Assembly: GCA_034766995.1 (NCBI GenBank)
Contig: CM068318.1
Location: forward strand, 7,327,001 to 7,391,000
Direction: 5' to 3'
Origin: Acanthacorydalis orientalis
Lineage: Eukaryota; Arthropoda; Insecta; Megaloptera; Corydalidae
Length of the DNA stretch: 64,000 bases
Notes under the pieces: model-generated
Seen by the model: the letters and a program-made list of their open reading frames with translations, nothing else
Told to the model about the DNA's origin: nothing
The model's database searches: none
Translations under genes and position numbers: made by a program
Part shown: piece after piece, positions 9,248-48,052 of the stretch
Position numbering within the stretch: position 1 is the first letter of the stretch
Layout: every line of letters starts with the position of its first letter

Positions 9248-10405
9248 TGGGTCATCTCATAAGTAATGCGGTTTTTAAAATAAGTTTTGGAACAGAAAAA
9301 AAATGACGTTCTAATTTTGACCCGAAATATATTTTCCGTTATTTTCAACAACTTCTTCTGTCTTAATATTAAATATTCAATACACTGATGACAAAAATTT
9401 TTGAGGGTTTGCGTTAAAGAGCTGAGTTTCATGCAGAAATCACTCTCTGTACTAAGCCGTTTTTCATTGATGCAATTTCGGAGATTTTCGAACAGATGAC
9501 AATCCGATGATGCTAGGTCAAGGGAGTATGGGGCATGAGTCATAACTTCTCATTTAAATTTTCTCAATTTTTGGAGGGATTCGTGTGCCGTGTGAAACAT
9601 TATTCATTTTCTGTTGGCTAATTCTAATAGTTTTTTCATCAATGGATTGTTATATCCGCACCAGTTATTCACAATACGATTTCTTTGTGATGATTCGATT
9701 CTCTGGTAATAGTAATGGTTAGTTTTTTCCATATTCTACCAACCAGACAACATAAACTTTTTTTGAATGAAGTCCTCCTTTCATAGTTGAAGATGGTGTT
9801 TTTTTGCAGTCAACCCATTGTCTTCCACGTTTAATATCGTTATAAACAATCTTTTTTTCATTAACAGTAACAATTCTATTCATAAACGGATAATTTTGCA
9901 ATCGGAATACATGAGAAGTACAAATGTCCACATTTTGGTTTAAATTAACGTCTGATAACTCGTGCGGAACCCATTGACTCAGCTTAGAAACCTTAACAAT
10001 CATTTTTAAGTGTCGATAAATAGTTGAACGCATTAATTTGAGTTTCTTGGTTAATTCTTCTTGAACTAGTATTTTGGTCCACTAATGTTCGCAGGATCCC
10101 ATCATCAAACTCTTGAAGACGACCTGACCTCTCCTCATCTTCAAGGCTGTGGTTCCTGGACCGAACTCGTTGAAATTATCTTTGTCATTGGCTAAGATTA
10201 AAGATCTGAACCATACATTTCTCACAATTTTTTCACTGTAGTTGTAGCGTTGTTACCCTGATGAAACTCCTAAAGTAAAATACGCGTTATATGCTCTTTT
10301 GACATTTCCATGATCACTAATATTTTTTTTTGTAAATTTGCGTGATCACTGTTAATCTTCCAGTTAGACTGAGAAAGAAAACATTACGTAATTTTTTGAT
10401 CAAAA
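9244..10405 (-). mobile_element. Decayed mariner element (mellifera-like subfamily)
   Basis: One terminus is clear: TTGGGTCATCTCATAAGTAA, continuing into TGCGGTTTTT, has the typical start of this mariner group. The other terminus, expected as its reverse complement, is only faintly visible (AAAACATTACGTAATTTTTT near 10,378-10,400). The length, about 1.16 kb, is close to the usual 1.2-1.3 kb of full mariners. The transposase inside is broken by stops and frameshifts, so the copy is dead. The outer edge at 10,405 is approximate. Confidence 0.8.
9250..10311 (-). pseudogene. Mariner transposase pseudogene
   Basis: Reading from 10,311 downwards, the start (MEMSKEHITRILL, stop, EFHQGNNATTTVKK) matches the mariner N-terminal helix-turn-helix region. 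It is followed by IYRHLKMIVKVSKLSQWVPH and ELSDVNLNQNVDICTS, then RIVTVNEKKIVYND, where family members have the first catalytic Asp (TGDE); here it reads Asn (TVNE). Downstream, the usual DNARPH block appears as NNVSHG, so the second Asp also seems lost. The C-terminal block HAPYSLDLASSDCHLF keeps the third Asp. Several in-frame stops and at least one frameshift interrupt the reading. This is a normal-length mariner transposase relic with two of three catalytic residues changed. Confidence 0.85.
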
Positions 10406-26460: not shown

Positions 26461-27515
26461 TTTCGTACCATTTACTCTTTTTCGTAAATGACGAATATGT
26501 CGATCATAATTCAAGAACTTATATTGTTGTGAAGTTTGATTGCGATAGTAAAATAAATAGAAAAATAACTTAAGAAATGTATTCTTGTTCGCTTTTTCTG
26601 ACATTGTGATTTCCGTTATTCCTTCATAAAATATGCAAAATGTTATAAAACTAGCAACTATTTCATACTGTTCGATGCGTAATTTCATGTTCTATATCGT
26701 AAAAGAGACAAAATTAACATAAGTTTATAATTGATACCGAAAAAGTGACAAAAACCGCGAAATATCCGCAAAACATCCGCAAAAATAAACGTTTTTCATG
26801 CTTAAAATATCCAAAATGTAAAAAAAAGACAAAAATTTCATACTGTTCGATGCGTATTCTCATGTTCTATATCATAAGATAATAATAAATACCAAAAATA
26901 ACTCAAAAACCCCCCAAAATCGCATTTCTTTGGATTTTGCGGATATGCGGATATGGCGGATACGCAAAAATAAACGTTTTTCTTGCTTAAAATAGCCAAA
27001 ATGTAAAAAAAATGACAAAAATTTCATACTGTTCGATGCGTATTCTCATGTTCTATATCATAAGATAATAATAAATACCAAAAATAACTCAAAAACCCCC
27101 CAAAATGCATTTTTTTGGATTTTGCGGATATGCGGATATAACGGATACGCAAAAATAAACGTTTTTCTTGCTTAAAATATCCAAAATGTAAAAAAAATTA
27201 CAAAAATTTCATACTGTTCGATGCGTATTCTCATGTTCTATATCATAAGATAATAATAAATACCAAAAATAACTCAAAAACCCCCCAAAATCGCATTTCT
27301 TTGGATTTTGCGGATATGCGGATATGGCGGATACGCAAAAATAAACGTTTTTCTTGCTTAAAATAGCCAAAATGTAAAAAAAATGACAAAAATTTCATAC
27401 TGTTCGATGCGTATTCTCATGTTCTATATCATAAGATAATAATAAATAACAAAAAATAACAAAAAACCCCCAAAAATCGCATTTTTTTGGATTTTGCGGA
27501 TATGCGGATATGGCA

Positions 27516-27620
27516 GATATGATATCCGCCGCGGATATGATATCCGCCGCGGATATGATATCCGCCGCGGATATGATATCCGCCGCGGATATGATATCCG
27601 CCGCGGATATGATATCCGCC
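27516..27620. repeat. A-dyad core 1: six 18-bp units
   Basis: Tandem GATATGATATCCGCCGCG, the last unit cut after GCC. Each unit contains GCGGATAT-G-ATATCCGC, a perfect inverted repeat about one central base. Four left-facing monomers precede it and four right-facing monomers follow, mirrored around the core, so the dyad extends from about 26,611 to 28,540. Confidence 0.95.
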
Positions 27621-28549
27621 ATATCCGCATATCCGCAAAATCCAAAAAAATGCGATTTTTGGGGGTTTTTGAGTTATTTTTGGTATTTATTATTATCTTA
27701 TGATATAGAACATGAGAATACGCATCGAACAGTATGAAATTTTTGTCATTTTTTTTACATTTTGGCTATTTTAAGCAAGAAAAACGTTTATTTTTGCGTA
27801 TCCGCCATATCCGCATATCCGCAAAATCCAAAGAAATGCGATTTTGGGGGGTTTTTGAGTTATTTTTGGTATTTATTATTATCTTATGATATAGAACATG
27901 AGAATACGCATCGAACAGTATGAAATTTTTGTCATTTTTTTTACATTTTGGCTATTTTAAGCAAGAAAAACGTTTATTTTTGCGTATCCGCCATATCCGC
28001 ATATCCGCAAAATCCAAAGAAATGCGATTTTGGGGGGTTTTTGAGTTATTTTTGGTATTTATTATTATCTTATGATATAGAACATGAGAATACGCATCGA
28101 ACAGTATGAAATTTTTGTCATTTTTTTTACATTTTGGCTATTTTAAGCAAGAAAAACGTTTATTTTTGCGTATCCGCCATATCCGCATATCCGCAAAATC
28201 CAAAGAAATGCGATTTTGGGGGGTTTTTGAGTTATTTTTGGTATTTATTATTATCTTATGATATAGAACATGAGAATACGCATCGAACAGTATGAAATTT
28301 TTGTCATTTTTTTACATTTTGGATATTTTAAGCATGAAAAACGTTTATTTTTGCGGATGTTTTGCGGATATTTCGCGGTTTTTGTCACTTTTTCGGTATC
28401 AATTATGAACCTATGTTAATTTTGTCTCTTTTACGATATAGAACATGACAATACGCATCGAACGGTATGAAATAGTTGCTAGTTTTATAACATTTTGCAT
28501 ATTTTATGAAGGAATAACGGAAATTTTTGCAGATATTTTGCGGTTTTTT

Positions 28550-29055
28550 TGATATTTCCGACATTTATTATGGACCGATGTTAATTTTGTCTAGAAATAT
28601 ACATAAAGCATTAAAAGACGAATCGACCAGTAATAACTAGTTACCAAAATATCCTACATATCAACAAAATAAACCATATCCGCCATATCCTCAATATCCG
28701 CCATATCCGCAATATATAAAATATCCAAATTGTTTTAAAAATGGCAACTATTTCATACCGGTCGATGCGAATATAATTGTTCTATATCATATCTTATTTA
28801 AAATTAATATCAGTCCATAAAATATGTAGGAAATATCAAATAAACTGCAAAAAATCACATTTTTTTGATATTGCGGATAATGCGGATATTTCGTATATGG
28901 TGGATATTACGAATATTGCTTATTTTGTGGATATGTAGGATAATTTGGCAACTAATTAATACTGGTCGATTCGTCTTTTAATGCTTTATGTATATTTCTA
29001 GACTAAATTAATATCTGTCCGTAATAAATGTCGGAAATATCATAAAAACCGCAAA
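28550..29055. repeat. B dyad 1, centre about 28,796
   Basis: GACGAATCGACCAGT on the left and ACTGGTCGATTCGTC on the right mark two arms of about 125 bp that are imperfect reverse complements. The left arm includes TCTAGAAATATACATAAAGC and the right arm GCTTTATGTATATTTCTAGA. The middle has CATATCCGC-type words and two diverged half-monomers. Arm identity is lower than in A dyads. Confidence 0.85.
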
Positions 29056-30304
29056 AAATCAGCAAAAATTACAGTTTTTCCTTCATAAAATACCCAAAAT
29101 GTTATAAAACTAGCAACTATTTCATACTGTTCTATGCGTTATTTAATGTTCTATTTCATACTTGAGTCAAAATTGACATCGGTTTATAATAGATACCGAA
29201 AAAGTCACAAAAACCGCGAAAAATTAACAAAAATAAAGGTTTTTCATGGCTAAAAGATCCAAAATGCTATAAAAATGGCAACTATTTCATACTATCCGAT
29301 GCGTATTTTAATATACTATATCATACATGAGTCAAAATTAACATCGGTTCATAATAGATACCAAAAAAGTCACAAAAACCGCGAAAAATTCGCGAAATTA
29401 AAGGTTTTTCATGCCTAAAATATCCAAAATGTTAAAAAAGTGGCAACTATTTCATACTATCCGATGCCTATTTTAATGTTCTATATCATAAATGAGACAA
29501 AAATAACATCGGTTCATAATGGATACCGAAAAAGTTACAAAAACCGCGAAATATCCGCAAAATATCCGCAAAAAAAAACGTTTTTCTTGCTTAAAATATC
29601 CAAAATGTAAAAAAAATTACAAAAATTTCATACTGTTCGATGCGTATTCTCATGTTCTATATCATAAGATAATAATAAATACCAAAAATAACTCGAAAAC
29701 CCCCCAAAATCGCATTTCTTTGGATTTTGCGGATATGCGGATATGGCGGATACGCAAAAATAAACGTTTTTCTTGCTTAAAATAGCCAAAATGTAAAAAA
29801 AATACAAAAATTTCATACTGTTCGATGCGTATTCTCATGTTCTATATCATAAGATAATAATAAATACCAAAAATAACTCAAAAACCCCCCAAAATCGCAT
29901 TTCTTTGGATTTTGCGGATATGCGGATATAGCGGATACGCAAAAATAAACGTTTTTCTTGCTTAAAATATCCAAAATGTAAAAAAAATTACAAAAATTTC
30001 ATACTGTTCGATGCGTATTCTCATGTTCTATATCATAAGATAATAATAAATACCAAAAATAACTCAAAAACCCCCCAAAATCGCATTTCTTTGGATTTTG
30101 CGGATATGCGGATATGGCGGATACGCAAAAATAAACGTTTTTCTTGCTTAAAATAGCCAAAATGTAAAAAAAATGACAAAAATTTCATACTGTTCGATGC
30201 GTATTCTCATGTTCTATATCATAAGATAATAATAAATAACAAAAAATAACAAAAAACCCCCAAAAATCGCATTTTTTTGGATTTGCGGATATGCGGATAT
30301 GGCA

Positions 30305-30391
30305 GATATGATATCCGCCGCGGATATGATATCCGCCGCGGATATGATATCCGCCGCGGATATGATATCCGCCGCGGATATGATATCCGCC
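30305..30391. repeat. A-dyad core 2: five 18-bp units
   Basis: Same unit and phase as core 1, one unit fewer. Four left-facing monomers before it, four right-facing after. Confidence 0.95.
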
Positions 30392-31324
30392 ATATCCGCA
30401 TATCCGCAAAATCCAAAAAAATGCGATTTTTGGGGGTTTTTGAGTTATTTTTGGTATTTATTATTATCTTATGATATAGAACATGAGAATACGCATCGAA
30501 CAGTATGAAATTTTTGTCATTTTTTTTACATTTTGGCTATTTTAAGCAAGAAAAACGTTTATTTTTGCGTATCCGCCATATCCGCATATCCGCAAAATCC
30601 AAAGAAATGCGATTTTGGGGGGTTTTTGAGTTATTTTTGGTATTTATTATTATCTTATGATATAGAACATGAGAATACGCATCGAACAGTATGAAATTTT
30701 TGTCATTTTTTTTACATTTTGGCTATTTTAAGCAAGAAAAACGTTTATTTTTGCGTATCCGCCATATCCGCATATCCGCAAAATCCAAAGAAATGCGATT
30801 TTGGGGGGTTTTTGAGTTATTTTTGGTATTTATTATTATCTTATGATATAGAACATGAGAATACGCATCGAACAGTATGAAATTTTTGTCATTTTTTTTT
30901 ACATTTTGGCTATTTTAAGCAAGAAAAACGTTTATTTTTGCGTATCCGCCATATCCGCATATCCGCAAAATCCAAAGAAATGCGATTTTGGGGGGTTTTT
31001 GAGTTATTTTTGGTATTTATTATTATCTTATGATATAGAACATGAGAATACGCATCGAACAGTATGAAATTTTTGTCATTTTTTTACATTTTGGATATTT
31101 TAAGCATGAAAAACGATTATTTTTGCGGATGTTTTGCGGATATTTCGCGGTTTTTGTCACTTTTTCGGTATCAATTATGAACCTATGTTAATTTTGTCTC
31201 TTTTACGATATAGAACATGACAATACGCATCGAACGGTATGAAATAGTTGCTAGTTTTATAACATTTTGCATATTTTATGAAGGAATAACGGAAATTTTT
31301 GCAGATATTTTGCGGTTTTTTTGA

Positions 31325-31810
31325 TATTTCCGACATTTATTATGGACCGATGTTAATTTTGTCTAGAAATATACATAAAGCATTAAAAGACGAATCGACC
31401 AGTAATAACTAGTTACCAAAATATCCTACATATCAACAAAATAAACCATATCCGCCATATCCTCAATATCCGCCATATCCGCAATATATAAAATATCCAA
31501 ATTGTTTTAAAAATGGCAACTATTTCATACCGGTCGATGCGAATATAATTGTTCTATATCATATCTTATTTAAAATTAATATCAGTCCATAAAATATGTA
31601 GGAAATATCAAATAAACTGCAAAAAATCACATTTTTTTGATATTGCGGATAATGCGGATATTTCGTATATGGTGGATATTACGAATATTGCTTATTTTGT
31701 GGATATGTAGGATAATTTGGCAACTAATTAATACTGGTCGATTCGTCTTTTAATGCTTTATGTATATTTCTAGACTAAATTAATATCTGTCCGTAATAAA
31801 TGTCGGAAAT
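31325..31810. repeat. B dyad 2, centre about 31,568
   Basis: Nearly identical to B dyad 1, including the CCTCAATATCCGCCATATCC word in the middle and AGTAATAACTAGT in the left arm. Confidence 0.85.
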
Positions 31811-33262
31811 ATCATAAAAACCGCAAAAAATCAGCAAAAATTACAGTTTTTCCTTCATAAAATACCCAAAATGTTATAAAACTAGCAACTATTTCATACT
31901 GTTCTATGCGTTATTTAATGTTCTATTTCATACTTGAGTCAAAATTGACATCGGTTTATAATAGATACCGAAAAAGTCACAAAAACCGCGAAAAATTAAC
32001 AAAAATAAAGGTTTTTCATGGCTAAAAGATCCAAAATGCTATAAAAATGGCAACTATTTCATACTATCCGATGCTTATTTTAATATACTATATCATACAT
32101 GAGTCAAAATTAACATCGGTTCATAATAGATACCAAAAAAGTCACAAAAACCGCGAAAAATTCGCGAAATTAAAGGTTTTTCATGCCTAAAATATCCAAA
32201 ATGTTAAAAAAGTGGCAACTATTTCATACTATCCGATGCCTATTTTAATGTTCTATATCATAAATGAGACAAAAATAACATCGGTTCATAATGGATACCG
32301 AAAAAGTTACAAAAACCGCGAAATATCCGCAAAATATCCGCAAAAAAAAACGTTTTTCTTGCTTAAAATATCCAAAATGTAAAAAAAATTACAAAAATTT
32401 CATACTGTTCGATGCGTATTCTCATGTTCTATATCATAAGATAATAATAAATACCAAAAATAACTCGAAAACCCCCCAAAATCGCATTTCTTTGGATTTT
32501 GCGGATATGCGGATATGGCGGATACGCAAAAATAAACGTTTTTCTTGCTTAAAATAGCCAAAATGTAAAAAAAATGACAAAAATTTCATACTGTTCGATG
32601 CGTATTCTCATGTTCTATATCATAAGATAATAATAAATACCAAAAATAACTCAAAACCCCCCCAAAATCGCATTTCTTTGGATTTTGCGGATATGCGGAT
32701 ATGGCGGATACGCAAAAATAAACGTTTTTCTTGCTTAAAATATCCAAAATGTAAAAAAAATACAAAAATTTCATACTGTTCGATGCGTATTCTCATGTTC
32801 TATATCATAAGATAATAATAAATACCAAAAATAACTCAAAAACCCCCCAAAATCGCATTTCTTTGGATTTTGCGGATATGCGGATATGGCGGATACGCAA
32901 AAATAAACGTTTTTCTTGCTTAAAATATCCAAAATGTAAAAAAAATTACAAAAATTTCATACTGTTCGATGCGTATTCTCATGTTCTATATCATAAGATA
33001 ATAATAAATACCAAAAATAACTCAAAAACCCCCCAAAATCGCATTTCTTTGGATTTTGCGGATATGCGGATATGGCGGATACGCAAAAATAAACGTTTTT
33101 CTTGCTTAAAATAGCCAAAATGTAAAAAAAATGACAAAAATTTCATACTGTTCGATGCGTATTCTCATGTTCTATATCATAAGATAATAATAAATAACAA
33201 AAAATAACAAAAAACCCCCAAAAATCGCATTTTTTTGGATTTGCGGATATGCGGATATGGCA

Positions 33263-33403
33263 GATATGATATCCGCCGCGGATATGATATCCGCCGCGGA
33301 TATGATATCCGCCGCGGATATGATATCCGCCGCGGATATGATATCCGCCGCGGATATGATATCCGCCGCGGATATGATATCCGCCGCGGATATGATATCC
33401 GCC
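33263..33403. repeat. A-dyad core 3: eight 18-bp units
   Basis: Same unit. Five left-facing monomers precede it, four right-facing follow. The flanking word just right of the core has a unique CCGTATATCC variant. Confidence 0.95.
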
Positions 33404-34334
33404 ATATCCGTATATCCGCAAAATCCAAAAAAATGCGATTTTTGGGGGTTTTTGAGTTATTTTTGGTATTTATTATTATCTTATGATATAGAACATGAGA
33501 ATACGCATCGAACAGTATGAAATTTTTGTCATTTTTTTTACATTTTGGCTATTTTAAGCAAGAAAAACGTTTATTTTTGCGTATCCGCCATATCCGCATA
33601 TCCGCAAGATCCAAAGAAATGCGATTTTGGGGGGTTTTTGAGTTATTTTTGGTATTTATTATTATCTTATGATATAGAACATGAGAATACGCATCGAACA
33701 GTATGAAATTTTTGTCATTTTTTTTACATTTTGGCTATTTTAAGCAAGAAAAACGTTTATTTTTGCGTATCCGCCATATCCGCATATCCGCAAAATCCAA
33801 AGAAATGCGATTTTGGGGGGTTTTTGAGTTATTTTTGGTATTTATTATTATCTTATGATATAGAACATGAGAATACGCATCGAACAGTATGAAATTTTTG
33901 TCATTTTTTTTACATTTTGGCTATTTTAAGCAAGAAAAACGTTTATTTTTGCGTATCCGCCATATCCGCATATCCGCAAAATCCAAAGAAATGCGATTTT
34001 GGGGGGTTTTTGAGTTATTTTTGGTATTTATTATTATCTTATGATATAGAACATGAGAATACGCATCGAACAGTATGAAATTTTTGTCATTTTTTTACAT
34101 TTTGGATATTTTAAGCATGAAAAACGTTTATTTTTGCGGATGTTTTGCGGATATTTCGCGGTTTTTGTCACTTTTTCGGTATCAATTATGAACCTATGTT
34201 AATTTTGTCTCTTTTACGATATAGAACATGACAATACGCATCGAACGGTATGAAATAGTTGCTAGTTTTATAACATTTTGCATATTTTATGAAGGAATAA
34301 CGGAAATTTTTGCAGATATTTTGCGGTTTTTTTG

Positions 34335-34820
34335 ATATTTCCGACATTTATTATGGACCGATGTTAATTTTGTCTAGAAATATACATAAAGCATTAAAAG
34401 ACGAATCGACCAGTATTAACTAGTTACCAAAATATCCTACATATCAACAAAATAAACCATATCCGCCATATCCTCAATATCCGCCATATCCGCAATATAT
34501 AAAATATCCAAATTGTTTCAAAAATGGCAACTATTTCATACCGGTCGATGCGTAATAATTGTTCTATATCATATCTTATTTAAAATTAATATCAGTCCAT
34601 AAAATATGTAGGAAATATCAAATAAACTGCAAAAAATCACATTTTTTTGATATTGCGGATAATGCGGATATTTCGTATATGGTGGATATTACGAATATTG
34701 CTTATTTTGTGGATATGTAGGATAATTTGGCAACTAATTAATACTGGTCGATTCGTCTTTTAATGCTTTATGTATATTTCTAGACTAAATTAATATCTGT
34801 CCGTAATAAATGTCGGAAAT
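34335..34820. repeat. B dyad 3, centre about 34,578
   Basis: As B dyads 1 and 2 but with AGTATTAACTAGT in the left arm and GATGCGTAATAATTG in the middle, variants shared with all later units. Confidence 0.85.
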
Positions 34821-36087
34821 ATCATAAAAACCGCAAAAAATCAGCAAAAATTACAGTTTTTCCTTCATAAAATACCCAAAATGTTATAAAACTAGCAACT
34901 ATTTCATACTGTTCTATGCGTTATTTAATGTTCTATTTCATACTTGAGTCAAAATTGACATCGGTTTATAATAGATACCGAAAAAGTCACAAAAACCGCG
35001 AAAAATTAACAAAAATAAAGGTTTTTCATGGCTAAAAGATCCAAAATGCTATAAAAATGGCAACTATTTCATACTATCCGATGCGTATTTTAATATACTA
35101 TATCATACATGAGTCAAAATTAACATCGGTTCATAATAGATACCAAAAAAGTCACAAAAACCGCGAAAAATTCGCGAAATTAAAGGTTTTTCATGCCTAA
35201 AATATCCAAAATGTTAAAAAAGTGGCAACTATTTCATACTATCCGATGCCTATTTTAATGTTCTATATCATAAATGAGACAAAAATAACATCGGTTCATA
35301 ATGGATACCGAAAAAGTTACAAAAACCGCGAAATATCCGCAAAATATCCGCAAAAAAAACGTTTTTCTTGCTTAAAATATCCAAAATGTAAAAAAAATTA
35401 CAAAAATTTCATACTGTTCGATGCGTATTCTCATGTTCTATATCATAAGATAATAATAAATACCAAAAATAACTCGAAAACCCCCCAAAATCGCATTTCT
35501 TTGGATTTTGCGGATATGCGGATATGGCGGATACGCAAAAATAAACGTTTTTCTTGCTTAAAATAGCCAAAATGTAAAAAAAAATACAAAAATTTCATAC
35601 TGTTCGATGCGTATTCTCATGTTCTATATCATAAGATAATAATAAATACCAAAAATAACTCAAAAACCCCCCAAAATCGCATTTCTTTGGATTTTGCGGA
35701 TATGCGGATATGGCGGATACGCAAAAATAAACGTTTTTCTTGCTTAAAATATCCAAAATGTAAAAAAAATTACAAAAATTTCATACTGTTCGATGCGTAT
35801 TCTCATGTTCTATATCATAAGATAATAATAAATACCAAAAATAACTCAAAAACCCCCCAAAATCGCATTTCTTTGGATTTTGCGGATATGCGGATATGGC
35901 GGATACGCAAAAATAAACGTTTTTCTTGCTTAAAATAGCCAAAATGTAAAAAAAATGACAAAAATTTCATACTGTTCGATGCGTATTCTCATGTTCTATA
36001 TCATAAGATAATAATAAATAACAAAAAATAACAAAAAACCCCCAAAAATCGCATTTTTTTGGATTTTGCGGATATGCGGATATGGCA

Positions 36088-36192
36088 GATATGATATCCG
36101 CCGCGGATATGATATCCGCCGCGGATATGATATCCGCCGCGGATATGATATCCGCCGCGGATATGATATCCGCCGCGGATATGATATCCGCC
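36088..36192. repeat. A-dyad core 4: six 18-bp units
   Basis: Same unit as core 1. Four left-facing monomers before it, four right-facing after. Confidence 0.95.
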
Positions 36193-37124
36193 ATATCCGC
36201 ATATCCGCAAAATCCAAAAAAATGCGATTTTTGGGGGTTTTTGAGTTATTTTTGGTATTTATTATTATCTTATGATATAGAACATGAGAATACGCATCGA
36301 ACAGTATGAAATTTTTGTCATTTTTTTTACATTTTGGCTATTTTAAGCAAGAAAAACGTTTATTTTTGCGTATCCGCCATATCCGCATATCCGCAAAATC
36401 CAAAGAAATGCGATTTTGGGGGGTTTTTGAGTTATTTTTGGTATTTATTATTATCTTATGATATAGAACATGAGAATACGCATCGAACAGTATGAAATTT
36501 TTGTCATTTTTTTTACATTTTGGCTATTTTAAGCAAGAAAAACGTTTATTTTTGCGTATCCGCCATATCCGCATATCCGCAAAATCCAAAGAAATGCGAT
36601 TTTGGGGGGTTTTTGAGTTATTTTTGGTATTTATTATTATCTTATGATATAGAACATGAGAATACGCATCGAACAGTATGAAATTTTTGTCATTTTTTTT
36701 ACATTTTGGCTATTTTAAGCAAGAAAAACGTTTATTTTTGCGTATCCGCCATATCCGCATATCCGCAAAATCCAAAGAAATGCGATTTTGGGGGGTTTTT
36801 GAGTTATTTTTGGTATTTATTATTATCTTATGATATAGAACATGAGAATACGCATCGAACAGTATGAAATTTTTGTCATTTTTTTACATTTTGGATATTT
36901 TAAGCATGAAAAACGTTTATTTTTGCGGATGTTTTGCGGATATTTCGCGGTTTTTGTCACTTTTTCGGTATCAATTATGAACCTATGTTAATTTTGTCTC
37001 TTTTACGATATAGAACATGACAATACGCATCGAACGGTATGAAATAGTTGCTAGTTTTATAACATTTTGCATATTTTATGAAGGAATAACGGAAATTTTT
37101 GCAGATATTTTGCGGTTTTTTTGA

Positions 37125-37615
37125 TATTTCCGACATTTATTATGGACCGATGTTAATTTTGTCTAGAAATATACATAAAGCATTAAAAGACGAATCGACC
37201 AGTATTAACTAGTTACCAAAATATCCTACATATCAACAAAATAAACCATATCCGCCATATCCTCAATATCCGCCATATCCGCAATATATAAAATATCCAA
37301 ATTGTTTTAAAAATGGCAACTATTTCATACCGGTCGATGCGTAATAATTGTTCTATATCATATCTTATTTAAAATTAATATCAGTCCATAAAATATGTAG
37401 GAAATATCAAATAAACTGCAAAAAATCACATTTTTTTGATATTGCGGATAATGCGGATATTTCGTATATGGTGGATATTACGAATATTGCTTATTTTGTG
37501 GATATGTAGGATAATTTGGCAACTAATTAATACTGGTCGATTCGTCTTTTAATGCTTTATGTATATTTCTAGACTAAATTAATATCTGTCCGTAATAAAT
37601 GTCGGAAATATCATA
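37125..37615. repeat. B dyad 4, centre about 37,367
   Basis: Same variants as B dyad 3; still has the 18-bp CCTCAATATCCGCCATAT segment lost in later units. Confidence 0.85.
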
Positions 37616-39063
37616 AAAACCGCAAAAAATCAGCAAAAATTACAGTTTTTCCTTCATAAAATACCCAAAATGTTATAAAACTAGCAACTATTTCATACTG
37701 TTCTATGCGTTATTTAATGTTCTATTTCATACTTGAGTCAAAATTGACATCGGTTTATAATAGATACCGAAAAAGTCACAAAAACCGCGAAAAATTAACA
37801 AAAATAAAGGTTTTTCATGGCTAAAAGATCCAAAATGCTATAAAAATGGCAACTATTTCATACTATCCGATGCGTATTTTAATATACTATATCATACATG
37901 AGTCAAAATTAACATCGGTTCATAATAGATACCAAAAAAGTCACAAAAACCGCGAAAAATTCGCGAAATTAAAGGTTTTTCATGCCTAAAATATCCAAAA
38001 TGTTAAAAAAGTGGCAACTATTTCATACTATCCGATGCCTATTTTAATGTTCTATATCATAAATGAGACAAAAATAACATCGGTTCATAATGGATACCGA
38101 AAAAGTTACAAAAACCGCGAAATATCCGCAAAATATCCGCAAAAAAAAACGTTTTTCTTGCTTAAAATATCCAAAATGTAAAAAAAATTACAAAAATTTC
38201 ATACTGTTCGATGCGTATTCTCATGTTCTATATCATAAGATAATAATAAATACCAAAAATAACTCGAAAACCCCCCAAAATCGCATTTCTTTGGATTTTG
38301 CGGATATGCGGATATGGCGGATACGGAAAAATAAACGTTTTTCTTGCTTAAAATAGCCAAAATGTAAAAAAAATGACAAAAATTTCATACTGTTCGATGC
38401 GTATTCTCATGTTCTATATCATAAGATAATAATAAATACCAAAAATAACTCAAAACCCCCCCAAAATCGCATTTCTTTGGATTTTGCGGATATGCGGATA
38501 TGGCGGATACGCAAAAATAAACGTTTTTCTTGCTTAAAATATCCAAAATGTAAAAAAAATTACAAAAATTTCATACTGTTCGATGCGTATTCTCATGTTC
38601 TATATCATAAGATAATAATAAATACCAAAAATAACTCGAAAACCCCCCAAAATCGCATTTCTTTGGATTTTGCGGATATGCGGATATGGCGGATACGCAA
38701 AAATAAACGTTTTTCTTGCTTAAAATAGCCAAAATGTAAAAAAAATGACAAAAATTTCATACTGTTCGATGCGTATTCTCATGTTCTATATCATAAGATA
38801 ATAATAAATACCAAAAATAACTCAAAAACCCCCCAAAATCGCATTTCTTTGGATTTTGCGGATATGCGGATATGGCGGATACGCAAAAATAAACGTTTTT
38901 CTTGCTTAAAATAGCCAAAATGTAAAAAAAATGACAAAAATTTCATACTGTTCGATGCGTATTCTCATGTTCTATATCATAAGATAATAATAAATAACAA
39001 AAAATAACAAAAAACCCCCAAAAATCGTATTTTTTTGGATTTTGCGGATATGCGGATATGGCA

Positions 39064-39204
39064 GATATGATATCCGCCGCGGATATGATATCCGCCGCGG
39101 ATATGATATCCGCCGCGGATATGATATCCGCCGCGGATATGATATCCGCCGCGGATATGATATCCGCCGCGGATATGATATCCGCCGCGGATATGATATC
39201 AGCC
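39064..39204. repeat. A-dyad core 5: eight 18-bp units
   Basis: The last unit reads GATATGATATCAGCC instead of GATATGATATCCGCC, and AATCGTATTTTTTT replaces AATCGCATTTTTTT at the left. Cores 6 and 7 share both changes. Five left-facing monomers before it, four right-facing after. Confidence 0.95.
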
Positions 39205-40134
39205 ATATCCGCATATCCGCAAAATCCAAAAAAATGCGATTTTTGGGGGTTTTTGAGTTATTTTTGGTATTTATTATTATCTTATGATATAGAACATGAG
39301 AATACGCATCGAACAGTATGAAATTTTTGTCATTTTTTTTACATTTTGGCTATTTTAAGCAAGAAAAACGTTTATTTTTGCGTATCCGCCATATCCGCAT
39401 ATCCGCAAAATCCAAAGAAATGCGATTTTGGGGGGTTTTTGAGTTATTTTTGGTATTTATTATTATCTTATGATATAGAACATGAGAATACGCATCGAAC
39501 AGTATGAAATTTTTGTCATTTTTTTTACATTTTGGCTATTTTAAGCAAGAAAAACGTTTATTTTTGCGTATCCGCCATATCCGCATATCCGCAAAATCCA
39601 AAGAAATGCGATTTTGGGGGGTTTTTGAGTTATTTTTGGTATTTATTATTATCTTATGATATAGAACATGAGAATACGCATCGAACAGTATGAAATTTTT
39701 GTCATTTTTTTTACATTTTGGCTATTTTAAGCAAGAAAAACGTTTATTTTTGCGTATCCGCCATATCCGCATATCCGCAAAATCCAAAGAAATGCGATTT
39801 TGGGGGGTTTTTGAGTTATTTTTGGTATTTATTATTATCTTATGATATAGAACATGAGAATACGCATCGAACAGTATGAAATTTTTGTCATTTTTTTACA
39901 TTTTGGATATTTTAAGCATGAAAAACATTTATTTTTGCGGATGTTTTGCGGATATTTCGCGGTTTTTGTCACTTTTTCGGTATCAATTATGAACCTATGT
40001 TAATTTTGTCTCTTTTACGATATAGAACATGACAATACGCATCGAACGGTATGAAATAGTTGCTAGTTTTATAACATTTTGCATATTTTATGAAGGAATA
40101 ACGGAAATTTTTGCAGATATTTTGCGGTTTTTTT

Positions 40135-40615
40135 GATATTTCCGACATTTATTATGGACCGATGTTAATTTTGTCTAGAAATATACATAAAGCATTAAAA
40201 GACGAATCGACCAGTATTAACTAGTTACCAAAATATCCTACATATCAACAAAATAAACCATATCCGCCATATCCGCAATATATAAAATATCCAAATTGTT
40301 TCAAAAATGGCAACTATTTCATACCGGTCGATGCGTAATAATTGTTCTATATCATATCTTATTTAAAATTAATATCAGTCCATAAAATATGTAGGAAATA
40401 TCAAATAAACTGCAAAAAATCACATTTTTTTGATATTGCGGATAATGCGGATATTTCGTATATGGTGGATATTACGAATATTGCTTATTTTGTGGATATG
40501 TAGGATAATTTGGCAACTAATTAATACTGGTCGATTCGTCTTTTAATGCTTTATGTATATTTCTAGACTAAATTAATATCTGTCCGTAATAAATGTCGGA
40601 AATATCATAAAAACC
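40135..40615. repeat. B dyad 5, centre about 40,370
   Basis: Lacks an 18-bp CATATCC-type segment in the middle that dyads 1-4 have; the same deletion is in dyads 6 and 7. Confidence 0.85.
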
Positions 40616-41871
40616 GCAAAAAATCAGCAAAAATTACAGTTTTTCCTTCATAAAATACCCAAAATGTTATAAAACTAGCAACTATTTCATACTGTTCTAT
40701 GCGTTATTTAATGTTCTATTTCATACTTGAGTCAAAATTGACATCGGTTTATAATAGATACCGAAAAAGTCACAAAAACCGCGAAAAATTAACAAAAATA
40801 AAGGTTTTTCATGGCTAAAAGATCCAAAATGCTATAAAAATGGCAACTATTTCATACTATCCGATGCGTATTTTAATATACTATATCATACATGAGTCAA
40901 AATTAACATCGGTTCATAATAGATACCAAAAAAGTCACAAAAACCGCGAAAAATTCGCGAAATTAAAGGTTTTTCATGCCTAAAATATCCAAAATGTTAA
41001 AAAAGTGGCAACTATTTCATACTATCCGATGCCTATTTTAATGTTCTATATCATAAATGAGACAAAAATAACATCGGTTCATAATGGATACCGAAAAAGT
41101 TACAAAAACCGCGAAATATCCGCAAAATATCCGCAAAAAAAAACGTTTTTCTTGCTTAAAATATCCAAAATGTAAAAAAATTTACAAAAATTTCATACTG
41201 TTCGATGCGTATTCTCATGTTCTATATCATAAGATAATAATAAATACCAAAAATAACTCGAAAACCCCCCAAAATCGCATTTCTTTGGATTTTGCGGATA
41301 TGCGGATATGGCGGATACGGAAAAATAAACGTTTTTCTTGCTTAAAATAGCCAAAATGTAAAAAAAATGACAAAAATTTCATACTGTTCGATGCGTATTC
41401 TCATGTTCTATATCATAAGATAATAATAAATACCAAAAATAACTCAAAACCCCCCCAAAATCGCATTTCTTTGGATTTTGCGGATATGCGGATATGGCGG
41501 ATACGCAAAAATAAACGTTTTTCTTGCTTAAAATATCCAAAATGTAAAAAAAATTACAAAAATTTCATACTGTTCGATGCGTATTCTCATGTTCTATATC
41601 ATAAGATAATAATAAATACCAAAAATAACTCGAAAACCCCCCAAAATCGCATTTCTTTGGATTTTGCGGATATGCGGATATGGCGGATACGCAAAAATAA
41701 ACGTTTTTCTTGCTTAAAATAGCCAAAATGTAAAAAAAATGACAAAAATTTCATACTGTTCGATGCGTATTCTCATGTTCTATATCATAAGATAATAATA
41801 AATAACAAAAAATAACAAAAAACCCCCAAAAATCGTATTTTTTTGGATTTTGCGGATATGCGGATATGGCA

Positions 41872-42012
41872 GATATGATATCCGCCGCGGATATGATATC
41901 CGCCGCGGATATGATATCCGCCGCGGATATGATATCCGCCGCGGATATGATATCCGCCGCGGATATGATATCCGCCGCGGATATGATATCCGCCGCGGAT
42001 ATGATATCAGCC
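41872..42012. repeat. A-dyad core 6: eight 18-bp units
   Basis: Same as core 5, including the TCAGCC end. Four left-facing monomers before it, only three right-facing after. Confidence 0.95.
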
Positions 42013-42756
42013 ATATCCGCATATCCGCAAAATCCAAAAAAATGCGATTTTTGGGGGTTTTTGAGTTATTTTTGGTATTTATTATTATCTTATGATATAG
42101 AACATGAGAATACGCATCGAACAGTATGAAATTTTTGTCATTTTTTTTACATTTTGGCTATTTTAAGCAAGAAAAACGTTTATTTTTGCGTATCCGCCAT
42201 ATCCGCATATCCGCAAAATCCAAAGAAATGCGATTTTGGGGGGTTTTTGAGTTATTTTTGGTATTTATTATTATCTTATGATATAGAACATGAGAATACG
42301 CATCGAACAGTATGAAATTTTTGTCATTTTTTTTACATTTTGGCTATTTTAAGCAAGAAAAACGTTTATTTTTGCGTATCCGCCATATCCGCATATCCGC
42401 AAAATCCAAAGAAATGCGATTTTGGGGGGTTTTTGAGTTATTTTTGGTATTTATTATTATCTTATGATATAGAACATGAGAATACGCATCGAACAGTATG
42501 AAATTTTTGTCATTTTTTTACATTTTGGATATTTTAAGCATGAAAAACATTTATTTTTGCGGATGTTTTGCGGATATTTCGCGGTTTTTGTCACTTTTTC
42601 GGTATCAATTATGAACCTATGTTAATTTTGTCTCTTTTACGATATAGAACATGACAATACGCATCGAACGGTATGAAATAGTTGCTAGTTTTATAACATT
42701 TTGCATATTTTATGAAGGAATAACGGAAATTTTTGCAGATATTTTGCGGTTTTTTT

Positions 42757-43240
42757 GATATTTCCGACATTTATTATGGACCGATGTTAATTTTGTCTAG
42801 AAATATACATAAAGCATTAAAAGACGAATCGACCAGTATTAACTAGTTACCAAAATATCCTACATATCAACAAAATAAACCATATCCGCCATATCCGCAA
42901 TATATAAAATATCCAAATTGTTTCAAAAATGGCAACTATTTCATACCGGTCGATGCGTAATAATTGTTCTATATCATATCTTATTTAAAATTAATATCAG
43001 TCCATAAAATATGTAGGAAATATCAAATAAACTGCAAAAAATCACATTTTTTTGATATTGCGGATAATGCGGATATTTCGTATATGGTGGATATTACGAA
43101 TATTGCTTATTTTGTGGATATGTAGGATAATTTGGCAACTAATTAATACTGGTCGATTCGTCTTTTAATGCTTTATGTATATTTCTAGACTAAATTAATA
43201 TCTGTCCGTAATAAATGTCGGAAATATCATAAAAACCGCA
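42757..43240. repeat. B dyad 6, centre about 42,992
   Basis: Same 18-bp deletion and variants as B dyad 5. Confidence 0.85.
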
Positions 43241-44678
43241 AAAAATCAGCAAAAATTACAGTTTTTCCTTCATAAAATACCCAAAATGTTATAAAACTAG
43301 CAACTATTTCATACTGTTCTATGCGTTATTTAATGTTCTATTTCATACTTGAGTCAAAATTGACATCGGTTTATAATAGATACCGAAAAAGTCACAAAAA
43401 CCGCGAAAAAATAACAAAAATAAAGGTTTTTCATGGCTAAAAGATCCAAAATGCTATAAAAATGGCAACTATTTCATACTATCCGATGCGTATTTTAATA
43501 TACTATATCATACATGAGTCAAAATTAACATCGGTTCATAATAGATACCAAAAAAGTCACAAAAACCGCGAAAAATTCGCGAAATTAAAGGTTTTTCATG
43601 CCTAAAATATCCAAAATGTTAAAAAAGTGGCAACTATTTCATACTATCCGATGCCTATTTTAATGTTCTATATCATAAATGAGACAAAAATAACATCGGT
43701 TCATAATGGATACCGAAAAAGTTACAAAAACCGCGAAATATCCGCAAAATATCCGCAAAAAAAACGTTTTTCTTGTTTAAAATATCCAAAATGTAAAAAA
43801 ATTTACAAAAATTTCATACTGTTCGATGCGTATTCTCATGTTCTATATCATAAGATAATAATAAATACCAAAAATAACTCGAAAACCCCCCAAAATCGCA
43901 TTTCTTTGGATTTTGCGGATATGCGGATATGGCGGATACGGAAAAATAAACGTTTTTCTTGCTTAAAACAGCCAAAATGTAAAAAAAATGACAAAAATTT
44001 CATACTGTTCGATGCGTATTCTCATGTTCTATATCATAAGATAATAATAAATACCAAAAATAACTCAAAACCCCCCCAAAATCGCATTTCTTTGGATTTT
44101 GCGGATATGCGGATATGGCGGATACGCAAAAATAAACGTTTTTCTTGCTTAAAATATCCAAAATGTAAAAAAAATTACAAAAATTTCATACTGTTCGATG
44201 CGTATTCTCATGTTCTATATCATAAGATAATAATAAATACCAAAAATAACTCGAAAACCCCCCAAAATCGCATTTCTTTGGATTTTGCGGATATGCGGAT
44301 ATGGCGGATACGCAAAAATAAACGTTTTTCTTGCTTAAAATAGCCAAAATGTAAAAAAAATGACAAAAATTTCATACTGTTCGATGCGTATTCTCATGTT
44401 CTATATCATAAGATAATAATAAATACCAAAAATAACTCAAAAACCCCCCAAAATCGCATTTCTTTGGATTTTGCGGATATGCGGATATGGCGGATACGCA
44501 AAAATAAACGTTTTTCTTGCTTAAAATAGCCAAAATGTAAAAAAAATGACAAAAATTTCATACTGTTCGATGCGTATTCTCATGTTCTATATCATAAGAT
44601 AATAATAAATAACAAAAAATAACAAAAAACCCCCAAAAATCGTATTTTTTTGGATTTTGCGGATATGCGGATATGGCA

Positions 44679-44801
44679 GATATGATATCCGCCGCGGATA
44701 TGATATCCGCCGCGGATATGATATCCGCCGCGGATATGATATCCGCCGCGGATATGATATCCGCCGCGGATATGATATCCGCCGCGGATATGATATCAGC
44801 C
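44679..44801. repeat. A-dyad core 7: seven 18-bp units
   Basis: Same as cores 5 and 6 with one unit fewer. Five left-facing monomers before it, three right-facing after. Confidence 0.95.
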
Positions 44802-45544
44802 ATATCCGCATATCCGCAAAATCCAAAAAAATGCGATTTTTGGGGGTTTTTGAGTTATTTTTGGTATTTATTATTATCTTATGATATAGAACATGAGAAT
44901 ACGCATCGAACAGTATGAAATTTTTGTCATTTTTTTTACATTTTGGCTATTTTAAGCAAGAAAAACGTTTATTTTTGCGTATCCGCCATATCCGCATATC
45001 CGCAAAATCCAAATAAATGCGATTTTGGGGGGTTTTTGAGTTATTTTTGGTATTTATTATTATCTTATGATATAGAACATGAGAATACGCATCGAACAGT
45101 ATGAAATTTTTGTCATTTTTTTTACATTTTGGCTATTTTAAGCAAGAAAAACGTTTATTTTTGCGTATCCGCCATATCCGCATATCCGCAAAATCCAAAG
45201 AAATGCGATTTTGGGGGGTTTTTGAGTTATTTTTGGTATTTATTATTATCTTATGATATAGAACATGAGAATACGCATCGAACAGTATGAAATTTTTGTC
45301 ATTTTTTTACATTTTGGATATTTTAAGCATGAAAAACATTTATTTTTGCGGATGTTTTGCGGATATTTCGCGGTTTTTGTCACTTTTTCGGTATCAATTA
45401 TGAACCTATGTTAATTTTGTCTCTTTTACGATATAGAACATGACAATACGCATCGAACGGTATGAAATAGTTGCTAGTTTTATAACATTTTGCATATTTT
45501 ATGAAGGAATAACGGAAATTTTTGCAGATATTTTGCGGTTTTTT

Positions 45545-46030
45545 TGATATTTCCGACATTTATTATGGACCGATGTTAATTTTGTCTAGAAATATACATA
45601 AAGCATTAAAAGACGAATCGACCAGTATTAACTAGTTACCAAAATATCCTACATATCAACAAAATAAACCATATCCGCCATATCCGCAATATATAAAATA
45701 TCCAAATTGTTTCAAAAATGGCAACTATTTCATACCGGTCGATGCGTAATAATTGTTCTATATCATATCTTATTTAAAATTAATATCAGTCCATAAAATA
45801 TGTAGGAAATATCAAATAAACTGCAAAAAATCACATTTTTTTGATATTGCGGATAATGCGGATATTTCGTATATGGTGGATATTACGAATATTGCTTATT
45901 TTGTGGATATGTAGGATAATTTGGCAACTAATTAATACTGGTCGATTCGTCTTTTAATGCTTTATGTATATTTCTAGACTAAATTAATATCTGTCCGTAA
46001 TAAATGTCGGAAATATCATAAAAACCGCAA
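45545..46030. repeat. B dyad 7, centre about 45,781
   Basis: Same deletion and variants as B dyads 5 and 6. The last B dyad of the array. Confidence 0.85.
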
Positions 46031-46194
46031 AAAATCAGCAAAAATTACAGTTTTTCCTTCATAAAATACCCAAAATGTTATAAAACTAGCAACTATTTCA
46101 TACTGTTCTATGCGTTATTTAATGTTCTATTTCATACTTGAGTCAAAATTGACATCGGTTTATAATAGATACCGAAAAAGTCACAAAAACCGCG

Positions 46195-48052
46195 AAAAAT
46201 TCGCGAAATTAAAGGTTTTTCATGCCTAAAATATCCAAAATGTTAAAAAAGTGGCAACTATTTCATACTATCCGATGCCTATTTTAATGTTCTATATCAT
46301 AAATGAGACAAAAATAACATCGGTTCATAATGGATACCGAAAAAGTTACAAAAACCGCGAAATATCCGCAAAATATCCGCAAAAAAAAACGTTTTTCTTG
46401 CTTAAAATATCCAAAATGTAAAAAAAATTACAAAAATTTCATACTGTTCGATGCGTATTCTCATGTTCTATATCATAAGATAATAATAAATACCAAAAAT
46501 AACTCGAAAACCCCCCAAAATCGCATTTCTTTGGATTTTGCGGATATGCGGATATGGCGGATACGCAAAAATAAACGTTTTTCTTGCTTAAAATATCCAA
46601 AATGTAAAAAAAATTACAAAAATTTCATACTGTTCGATGCGTATTCTCATGTTCTATATCATAAGATAATAATAAATTCCAAAAATAACTCAAAAACCCC
46701 CCAAAATCGCATTTCTTTCGATTTTGCGGATATGCGGATATGGCGGATACGCAAAAATAAACGTTTTTCTTGCTTAAAATATCCAAAATGTAAAAAAAAT
46801 GACAAAAATTTCATACTGTTCGATGCGTATTCTCATGTTCTATATCATAAGATAATAATAAATAACAAAAAATAACAAAAAACCCCCAAAAATCGCATTT
46901 TTTTGGATTTTGCGGATATGCGGATATGGCGGATACGCAAAAATAAACGTTTTTGATGCTTAAAATAGCCAAAATGTAAAAAAAATGACAAAAATTTCAT
47001 ACTGTTCGATGCGTATTCTCATGTTCTATATCATAAGATAATAATAAATACCAAAAATAACTCAAAAACCCCCAAAAATCGCATTTTTTTGGATTTTGCG
47101 GATATGCGGATATGGCGGATATCATATCCGCGGCGGATATCATATCCGCGGCGGATATCATATCTGATATATCCGCATATCCGCAAAATCCAAAAAAATG
47201 CGATTTTTGGGGGTTTTTTGTTATTTTTTGTTATTTATTATTATCTTATGATATAGAACATGAGAATACGCATCGAACAGTATGAAATTTTTGTCATTTT
47301 TTTTACATTTTGGCTATTTTAAGCAAGAAAAACGTTTATTTTTGCGTATCCGCCATATCCGCATATCCGCAAAATCGAAAGAAATGCGATTTTGGGGGGT
47401 TTTTGAGTTATTTTTGGTATTTATTATTATCTTATGATATAGAACATGAGAATACGCATCGAACAGTATGAAATTTTTGTAATTTTTTTTACATTTTGGA
47501 TATTTTAAGCAAGAAAAACGTTTATTTTTGCGTATCCGCCATATCCGCATATCCGCAAAATCCAAAGAAATGCGATTTTGGGGGGTTTTCGAGTTATTTT
47601 TGGTATTTATTATTATCTTATGATATAGAACATGAGAATACGCATCGAACAGTATGAAATTTTTGTAATTTTTTTTACATTTTGGATATTTTAAGCAAGA
47701 AAAACGTTTTTTTTGCGGATATTTTGCGGATATTTCGCGGTTTTTGTAACTTTTTCGGTATCCATTATGAACCGATGTTATTTTTGTCTCATTTATGATA
47801 TAGAACATTAAAATAGGCATCGGATAGTATGAAATAGTTGCCACTTTTTTAACATTTTGGATATTTTAGGCATGAAAAACCTTTAATTTCGCGAATTTTT
47901 CGCGGTTTTTGTGACTTTTTTGGTATCTATTATGAACCGATGTTAATTTTGACTCATGTATGATATAGTATATTAAAATACGCATCGGATAGTATGAAAT
48001 AGTTGCCATTTTTATAGCATTTTGGATCTTTTAGCCATGAAAAACCTTTATT
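46195..48052. repeat. Terminal fold-back of the satellite array
   Basis: After B dyad 7 one diverged monomer of about 165 bp is missing: the CCGCGAAAAATTAACAAAAA-type monomer is skipped and the text goes straight to CCGCGAAAAATTCGCGAAAT near 46,195. Four left-facing monomers lead to core 8. To its right the sequence is the reverse complement of the left-facing set and then of the diverged monomers that follow B dyads, including the monomer missing on the left. The array stops at CATGAAAAACCTTTATT followed by unrelated ACACATTACC. Confidence 0.9.
47115..47170. repeat. A-dyad core 8: three 18-bp units in opposite orientation
   Basis: Reads GGCGGATATCATATCCGC, the reverse complement of the unit in cores 1-7 (ATATCATAT in place of ATATGATAT at the centre), with the last unit diverged to CATATCTGATATATCC. 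Confidence 0.9.

What the first reader, a model, noticed from the sequence alone, without database searches (positions are those of the whole stretch)
26611..48052. A 21-kb satellite built from alternating palindromes rather than head-to-tail monomers
Seen directly: about 186-bp monomers lie in both orientations, and the 2.6-3.0-kb higher-order unit contains two different dyads (A and B) that alternate along the whole array. Most described insect satellites are head-to-tail. This one is symmetric at three scales: the 18-bp unit, the monomer blocks and the kilobase-scale unit. Such DNA can form cruciforms and could mark a centromere, a fragile site or a heterochromatin boundary. Those roles are inference.
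Basis: partly seen in the sequence, partly recalled or inferred. Interest (0 to 1): 0.85.

Follow-up and report, generated by a model that had tools for sequence, protein, structure and literature searches.

The report
Dispersed satellite with nested mirror symmetry
A 21-kb block of repetitive DNA in what looks like an insect chromosome is built from a mirror-image repeat unit that occurs about a thousand times in clusters across the genome, a layout close to one described in flour beetles; its function is unproven.

Summary
The array is real: window 26,610-48,052 holds 64 monomers of ~186 bp plus ~165-bp relatives in both orientations, with eight A dyads (18-bp repeats) alternating with seven B modules. 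One correction: it is a polar, head-to-tail higher-order repeat whose unit contains two dyads, so the alternation follows automatically. The unit occurs about 1,040 times in the 548-Mb assembly; I located 33 sites on 10 contigs (8 known from 18-bp runs alone), several per chromosome. In 13 loci, 42 of 43 complete B cores follow their locus's polarity. Sampled arrays are homogenised locally, end at differing points of the unit, and cluster in interior chromosome zones. Four of nine measured terminal palindromes are near-perfect mirrors (97.8-98.5%), none of 26 internal ones (86.9-95.2%), suggesting fold-back template switching at array ends. At one site a larger inverted repeat (12.7-kb arms, 94%) holds this satellite and two others. 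Closest known: Tribolium macro-dyad satellites, stated in March 2026 to be documented only in that genus. A centromere role is unsupported: many sites per chromosome, genes between, no chromatin data. Most likely a hairpin-prone selfish satellite spreading as whole units. New variant of a known kind.

The parts
26610..48052 (.). whole array: polar HOR units, + polarity, with polarity-switched fragments at both ends
28356..31127 (+). one HOR unit as an example: B module, L arm (a, b, c 165-mers and four 186-mers, +), A dyad, R arm (four 186-mers, -)
27516..27620 (+). A dyad 1, 18-bp repeat x5.8
30305..30391 (+). A dyad 2, 18-bp repeat x4.8
33263..33403 (+). A dyad 3, 18-bp repeat x7.8
36088..36192 (+). 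A dyad 4, 18-bp repeat x5.8
39064..39204 (+). A dyad 5, 18-bp repeat x7.8
41872..42012 (+). A dyad 6, 18-bp repeat x7.8
44679..44801 (+). A dyad 7, 18-bp repeat x6.8
47114..47164 (-). A dyad 8, 18-bp repeat x2.8, flipped relative to the other seven
28356..29566 (+). B module 1 (165d -, B core dyad 28591-29005, 165a/b/c +)
31128..32338 (+). B module 2
34139..35348 (+). B module 3
36928..38137 (+). B module 4
39940..41131 (+). B module 5
42562..43753 (+). B module 6
45351..46478 (+). B module 7, lacking 165b; the hit stops at 46478, about 100 bases inside the first following 186-mer
26610..26961 (-). left end: outer R-type arm facing inward, i.e. polarity-switched (98.0-98.3% to R outer arms, 93-94% to L outer arms)
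46936..48052 (-). right end: flipped R-inner monomer, flipped A, then L-type arm reversed; arms 46062-46927 and 47169-48033 are 97.8% identical over 865

Best explanation
A dispersed satellite whose amplifying unit is a higher-order repeat of about 2 to more than 5 kb containing an inverted pair of monomer arms. SHOWN: a polar unit in the sampled loci, order d(-) Bcore a b c (+), 186-mers (+), A, 186-mers (-); about 1,040 copies; many arrays; variants shared within arrays and, in one case, by two arrays on different chromosomes; array edges without common ends; polarity-switched mirror palindromes at some edges. INFERRED: whole units leave one array, probably as extrachromosomal DNA amplified by rolling circle, re-enter other sites, and expand and homogenise there by unequal exchange or conversion. 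Because the arms can fold back on each other, replication switches template across the hairpin, which changes monomer number, flips A, and caps some ends with homotypic palindromes. No sequence-specific host function is needed. Any chromatin or dsRNA effect would be secondary.
For: Polar unit in 12 fetched 9.9-kb loci and the window (11 arrays): 42 of 43 complete B cores point with the locus majority. 1045 + 1037 anchor hits, control 0. B modules (41 full-length of 53): within-array divergence 0.06-0.64%, between-array means 0.4-2.5%; nearest relative in own array for 37 of 40. One B variant occurs in 25 hits, all in two arrays, 9 of 9 + on C4 and 16 of 16 - on C6. Edges fall at differing points of the unit. 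Terminal palindromes: 4 of 9 measured have 97.8-98.5% arm identity; internal: 0 of 26 measured exceed 95.2%. The window's last palindrome shares between its arms a variant seen in no other of 64 monomers and has its A flipped. An array at C1:14.894 Mb is flanked by a 661-bp direct duplication (98.9%), full-length only at those two places among 40 of 7600 candidates scored.
Against: No extrachromosomal DNA was looked at; circles are inference. The long flanking duplication was seen at one array and not at the window; none was found for two further arrays with parts of both flanks in hand. Five of nine terminal palindromes are not near-perfect mirrors. Arm-to-arm copying is not general: of 364 186-mers the closest relative is in another array's same arm 230 times, in the own array's opposite arm 61 times, tied 73. 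The window's right-edge arm is also 100% identical over 335 bases to five of seven L arms elsewhere in the array, so copying from the adjacent arm is not required for its outer part. Conserved B modules could instead reflect selection.
Confidence: 0.6

Rival explanations
1. Functional (peri)centromeric macro-dyad satellite: the symmetry itself helps organise heterochromatin or specify centromeres, as proposed for Tribolium.
For: Sites cluster in one interior zone per chromosome (29 sites; mean pairwise distance 0.13 of contig length, uniform 0.333, 0 of 20000 simulations as tight). Inversion modules are conserved between chromosomes. A second satellite also lies in opposed blocks at some sites. 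Proposed function in PMC13081366 (passages).
Against: Many sites per chromosome, hit stretches of tens of kb rather than megabases, kinase genes in the zones at ordinary density. Site sampling was not random. No chromatin data.
Confidence: 0.2
2. Derived from a fold-back transposon (like Tetris of Drosophila virilis) whose inverted-repeat tandem units were amplified.
For: Inverted arms made of tandem monomers; dispersed sites. Precedent PMC4079207 (abstract and outline).
Against: Edges at differing points of the unit, no common terminal sequence among those read; no protein homolog of the longest array ORF. Edges of a minority of arrays were read.
Confidence: 0.14
3. Assembly artefact: fold-back chimeric reads or mis-joined inverted copies.
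For: Inverted repeats are prone to such errors; the window's terminal arms are very alike. Reads were not available.
Against: Arms differ by 4.8-13.1% in the 26 internal palindromes measured and carry position-specific variants. The same architecture recurs at sites on several contigs with locus-specific variants.
Confidence: 0.03
4. A transcribed hairpin source: readthrough would give long double-stranded RNA and small RNAs that silence the arrays.
For: Folding potential (calculated as DNA). Inference only.
Against: No transcription data; no match to any Rfam family at gathering score in the window.
Confidence: 0.03

Closest known systems
Macro-dyad satellites of Tribolium (TmSat1/TmSat2 of T. 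madens, and T. castaneum, T. freemani; PMC13081366, passages read)
   Same: Satellite monomers switch orientation to give kb-scale dyads, conserved special sequences at inversion points, three nested scales of symmetry, two satellites intermingled in larger dyads (here seen at C4:45.9 Mb).
   Different: Here the dyad sits inside a short polar HOR with two distinct dyads per unit; arrays are tens of kb at many interior sites, about 0.5% of the genome by estimate rather than nearly 38%; different monomer lengths (165/186 and 155 bp against ~110-bp subunits and a 704-bp monomer).
Tetris / TIR-220 of Drosophila virilis (PMC4079207, abstract and outline seen)
   Same: Inverted arms containing ~220-bp tandem repeats; dispersal; satellite-like amplification.
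   Different: Tetris is described as a fold-back-like transposon with terminal inverted repeats; no constant ends were found here.
TCAST-like dispersed elements in T. castaneum euchromatin (PMC3411249, passages seen)
   Same: Satellite copies outside heterochromatin; rolling-circle replication of excised copies and reintegration proposed by its authors.
   Different: Those are partial monomers, short arrays or one element type with inverted repeats; here long polar HOR arrays.
Helentron-carried satellite-like repeats in Crassostrea gigas (PMC7492417, abstract and outline seen)
   Same: Dispersed satellite-like arrays.
   Different: There arrays sit inside elements with defined flanks; here edges vary. 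Helentron ends were not searched for.

Membership tests
Macro-dyad satellite (Tribolium type) | kb-scale inverted subarrays of one satellite | tested here: met
Macro-dyad satellite (Tribolium type) | conserved, distinct sequence at inversion points | tested here: met
   B module: between-array means 0.4-2.5% among 12 arrays with full-length modules; C10 modules 96.3-96.5% to the window's by blastn. A 18-mers run with the array polarity in 36 of 42 clusters, against it in 4, mixed in 2; two further palindromes have no exact 18-mer
Macro-dyad satellite (Tribolium type) | two satellites intermingled in a larger dyad | tested here: inconclusive
   seen at C4:45.90-45.95 Mb; other sites not fetched
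Macro-dyad satellite (Tribolium type) | multi-megabase putative (peri)centromeric blocks on all chromosomes | tested here: not met
   sites spread over interior zones; longest stretch of hits seen about 100 kb (C4 45.86-45.96 Mb, not shown continuous). Site lists are incomplete
Macro-dyad satellite (Tribolium type) | sequence homology to Tribolium satellites | not tested
   no Tribolium satellite sequence was compared
Fold-back transposon | constant terminal inverted repeats | tested here: not met
   edges at differing unit positions; single isolated elements were not sought exhaustively
Fold-back transposon | short target-site duplication | tested here: inconclusive
   blastn between flanks would miss a duplication of a few bases; C1:14.894 Mb has a 661-bp duplication instead
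Centromeric satellite | one array site per chromosome | tested here: not met
   9 sites located on C1, 6 on C2, 5 on C9
Centromeric satellite | CENP-A chromatin | not testable with these tools
   no chromatin data

The most novel reading that the evidence does not exclude
A second animal lineage has evolved nested macro-dyad satellites, and their ends record how they spread: arrays travel as linear or circular molecules whose free ends snap back at dyad A and prime their own copying, so that some integrated arrays are capped by homotypic palindromes (R'AR on the left, LAL' on the right). Palindromic structure would then be the replication device of a satellite, not a by-product.
Probability: 0.12. 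Interest if true: 0.75.

Novelty: new variant of a known kind. Interest (0 to 1): 0.5.

Why it matters
The March 2026 Tribolium paper states that macro-dyad satellites had been documented only in that genus (passage). If this genome is not a Tribolium, the layout has arisen elsewhere and can be compared. Because the unit here is short, polar and dispersed in many arrays, it lets one ask from sequence alone how inverted satellites move, expand and flip, which megabase blocks hide. The terminal palindromes give a concrete, testable footprint.

Tried and rejected
Rejected: protein-coding repeat. 186 is divisible by 3, so frames stay open; Pfam DUF6900 scores 35.5 bits, above its cut-off of 24.1, but its best stretch covers only 19 residues and no stretch passes alone; no protein scored E <= 0.001 among 2078 candidates. 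Rejected: general arm-to-arm gene conversion. Rejected by reasoning, not by a test: simple whole-array inversion by exchange between inverted arms, because both switch points in the window lie in + oriented monomers. Led nowhere: exact monomer patterns in viral and prokaryote contigs, 0 hits; Rfam and tRNA scans, 0 hits; identifying the host: TTAGG x5 and TCAGG x5 have no exact match in the assembly, which may only mean that telomeres are not assembled or are of another kind. Literature: eight paper searches; all but held a term for inverted, palindromic, fold-back or macro-dyad repeats. 'macro-dyad' with 'satellite' is in two papers, one on Tribolium and one citing it in its reference list. 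Subscription journals are mostly not held.

Sampling limits: the 12 loci were taken from matches to an A-dyad query, so they favour well-kept units. The 33 sites were merged by hand (hits closer than 100 kb) and are a lower bound; eight (C1 32.14 and 35.92, C2 23.88 and 34.33, C3, C7, C9 23.70 and 27.95 Mb) are known only from 18-mer runs. Only (97 hits; 25 hits) were listed in full; one search listed the first 100 of 2082 hits, all on C1. The clustering test used 29 of 33 sites (contigs of known length). The kinase count used matches on six contigs, from 123 of 455 candidates scored, with zones drawn from the same sites. The B comparison dropped 12 of 53 modules shorter than 1,150 bases, which removed the C10 array; one C10 row is an overlapping opposite-strand match (81.9%) that inflates C10's mean distances there. 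The 26 internal palindromes are those measured, not all in hand; terminal palindromes at L021, L022 and L025-L028 were not measured.
Full report
WHAT IS THERE. The window is contig C6, 7,327,001-7,391,000, of a 547,984,239-base assembly in 27 contigs. From 26,610 to 48,052 it consists of a satellite with ~186-bp monomers (64 copies) and ~165-bp relatives, in both orientations. Eight runs of an 18-bp repeat (2.8 to 7.8 copies) mark the A dyads; seven B modules of about 1.1-1.2 kb lie between them. A-to-A spacing is 2.44-2.98 kb. The A region folds at z -46 and the B region at z -18.7 against dinucleotide shuffles.

WHAT THE UNIT IS. Labelling by module gives one prevailing order: d(-) Bcore(+) a b c(+) 186-mers(+) A 186-mers(-); b is missing in some units. 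Monomers are inverted inside the unit, but units are head to tail: 42 of 43 complete B cores in 13 loci (11 arrays) point with their locus; the exception is at an array end, in L012. The alternation of A and B is thus a consequence of repeating any unit that holds one inverted pair. Position-specific variants separate outer L, inner L, inner R and outer R monomers along the array, as in other higher-order repeats. The six internal A palindromes of the window have arms 92.3-95.2% identical.

HOW MUCH AND WHERE. A 29-base B anchor with up to three mismatches gives 1045 forward and 1037 reverse hits, control 0; a typical B module holds one on each strand, so about 1,040 units, roughly 2.7 Mb or 0.5% of the genome at about 2.6 kb each (estimate). 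Merging by hand hits closer than 100 kb gives 33 sites: C1 9, C2 6, C3 1, C4 2, C5 2, C6 2, C7 1, C9 5, C10 1, C12 4. This is a lower bound, and eight of the sites are known from 18-mer runs alone. On the contigs of known length (29 of 33 sites) sites cluster: mean within-contig pairwise distance 0.13 of contig length against 0.333 expected, 0 of 20000 simulations as tight; 3 sites within 7 Mb of a contig end against 9.5 expected, P 0.003. Exact anchor hits on C1, listed in order up to 21.97 Mb, begin only at 11.80 Mb. Kinase loci inside the zones number 18 of 60 on six contigs, 14.9 expected, so the zones are not gene deserts by this crude measure. The site sample was not random, and the zones were drawn from the same sites.

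HOW IT EVOLVES. Full-length B modules (41 of 53) differ by 0.06-0.64% within arrays and by 0.4-2.5% between array means; the nearest relative is in the same array for 37 of 40. C10 modules, not in that set, are 96.3-96.5% identical to the window's module 1 by blastn. One B variant is found in 25 hits, all in two arrays: 9 of 9 on + on C4 and 16 of 16 on - on C6. That points to transfer of units between chromosomes and fits uniform polarity within arrays. Of 364 186-mers the closest relative is in the same arm of another array 230 times, in the opposite arm of the own array 61 times, tied 73, so arms are mostly not homogenised with each other.

ENDS. The array edges read fall at differing positions of the unit, which argues against a mobile element with fixed ends. 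The window's left end begins with an R-type arm facing inward (98.0-98.3% to R outer arms, 93-94% to L outer arms) and its right end finishes with an L-type arm facing back, A flipped. Of nine terminal palindromes measured, four have arms 97.8-98.5% identical (window left 894/908, window right 846/865, L012 left 1100/1123, C4 45,923,951 1221/1246); the other five are L024 88.6%, L011 92.8%, L016 89.2%, C4 45,900,433 95.8% and C4 45,916,384 87.9%. Of 26 internal palindromes measured none exceeds 95.2%. In the window's last palindrome the two arms share a variant seen in no other of the 64 monomers. The simplest reading is template switching across the hairpin, but an outer arm taken from most other L arms of the array would look the same in its outer 335 bases. 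A is flipped at two of the four near-perfect ends (window right, C4) and not at the other two. At C1:14.894 Mb an array is flanked by a 661-bp direct duplication (98.9%); full-length copies of that segment occur only at these two places among the 40 of 7600 candidates scored, while its second part matches a dispersed repeat at 89% or less. The window's flanks show no such duplication, and neither do the flank stretches in hand of two other C1 arrays. The 599 bases left of the window array are single-copy.

A LARGER DYAD. At C4:45.895-45.954 Mb, 45,901,222-45,913,905 pairs with 45,941,344-45,953,999 as an inverted repeat (94.4% over 12.7 kb). Its arms hold parts of this satellite, a 155-bp satellite and a 41-bp tandem repeat. 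The 155-bp satellite is itself dispersed and lies in opposed blocks at C1 32.04-32.11 Mb and C2 14.42-14.45 Mb, among others in one orientation only as far as listed. It shows weak collinear similarity to the monomers (10, 14 and 59 of 1000 shuffles as good for three monomers on the same strand; 743 or more on the other strand).

COMPARISON. The Tribolium madens paper (passages read) describes kb-scale inverted subarrays, conserved inversion-site sequences, three scales of dyad symmetry and two intermingled satellites, and says such macro-dyads were documented exclusively in Tribolium. The present case shares the plan but differs in its short polar two-dyad unit, its dispersal and its small total amount. 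Host identity is unknown: TTAGG and TCAGG repeats have no exact five-fold match; TCAGG is the Tribolium telomere repeat by recall, so Tribolium is unlikely but not excluded. Tetris (abstract and outline), TCAST-like elements (passages) and oyster Helentrons (abstract and outline) are the nearest transposon-linked precedents found.

VERDICT. A real, well-ordered and dispersed higher-order satellite with nested dyads; a new variant of a known kind. Best explanation: hairpin-prone selfish satellite spreading as whole units (0.6). Function as a centromere or boundary is not shown.

Noticed in passing
L020:8646-9901 (C4:45.904 Mb) and sites on C1, C2, C3, C4, C5, C6, C10: A second, 155-bp satellite abuts one array, is dispersed, and at several sites lies as opposed + and - blocks.
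   Followed up: partly
L031:76-1153 (C4:45,925,276-45,926,353): The ATATCCGCC repeat beside a B dyad is expanded to about 60 copies of 18 bp, so the B side can expand like A.
   Followed up: no
L029, L031 (C4:45.905-45.915 and from 45.927 Mb): A 41-bp tandem repeat of about 200 copies or more lies on both sides of the larger dyad; blastn pairs the right-hand block (45.933-45.950 Mb) with itself on the opposite strand over 17 kb at 92%.
   Followed up: no
C1:14,893,230-14,893,886 and 14,901,833-14,902,490: Direct duplication of 657-661 bp flanking a small array, beside what reads like a mariner-type frame (recalled motif; repeat copies).
   Followed up: partly
window 9719-10081 (-): Possible mariner-like transposase remnant; Pfam Transposase_1 at 17.3 bits, below its cut-off of 24.
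   Followed up: no
whole assembly: Neither (TTAGG)5 nor (TCAGG)5 has an exact match in the assembly.
   Followed up: no
window 43606-44343 (+): Open frame of 245 codons through satellite monomers because 186 is a multiple of three; no protein homolog found.
   Followed up: yes
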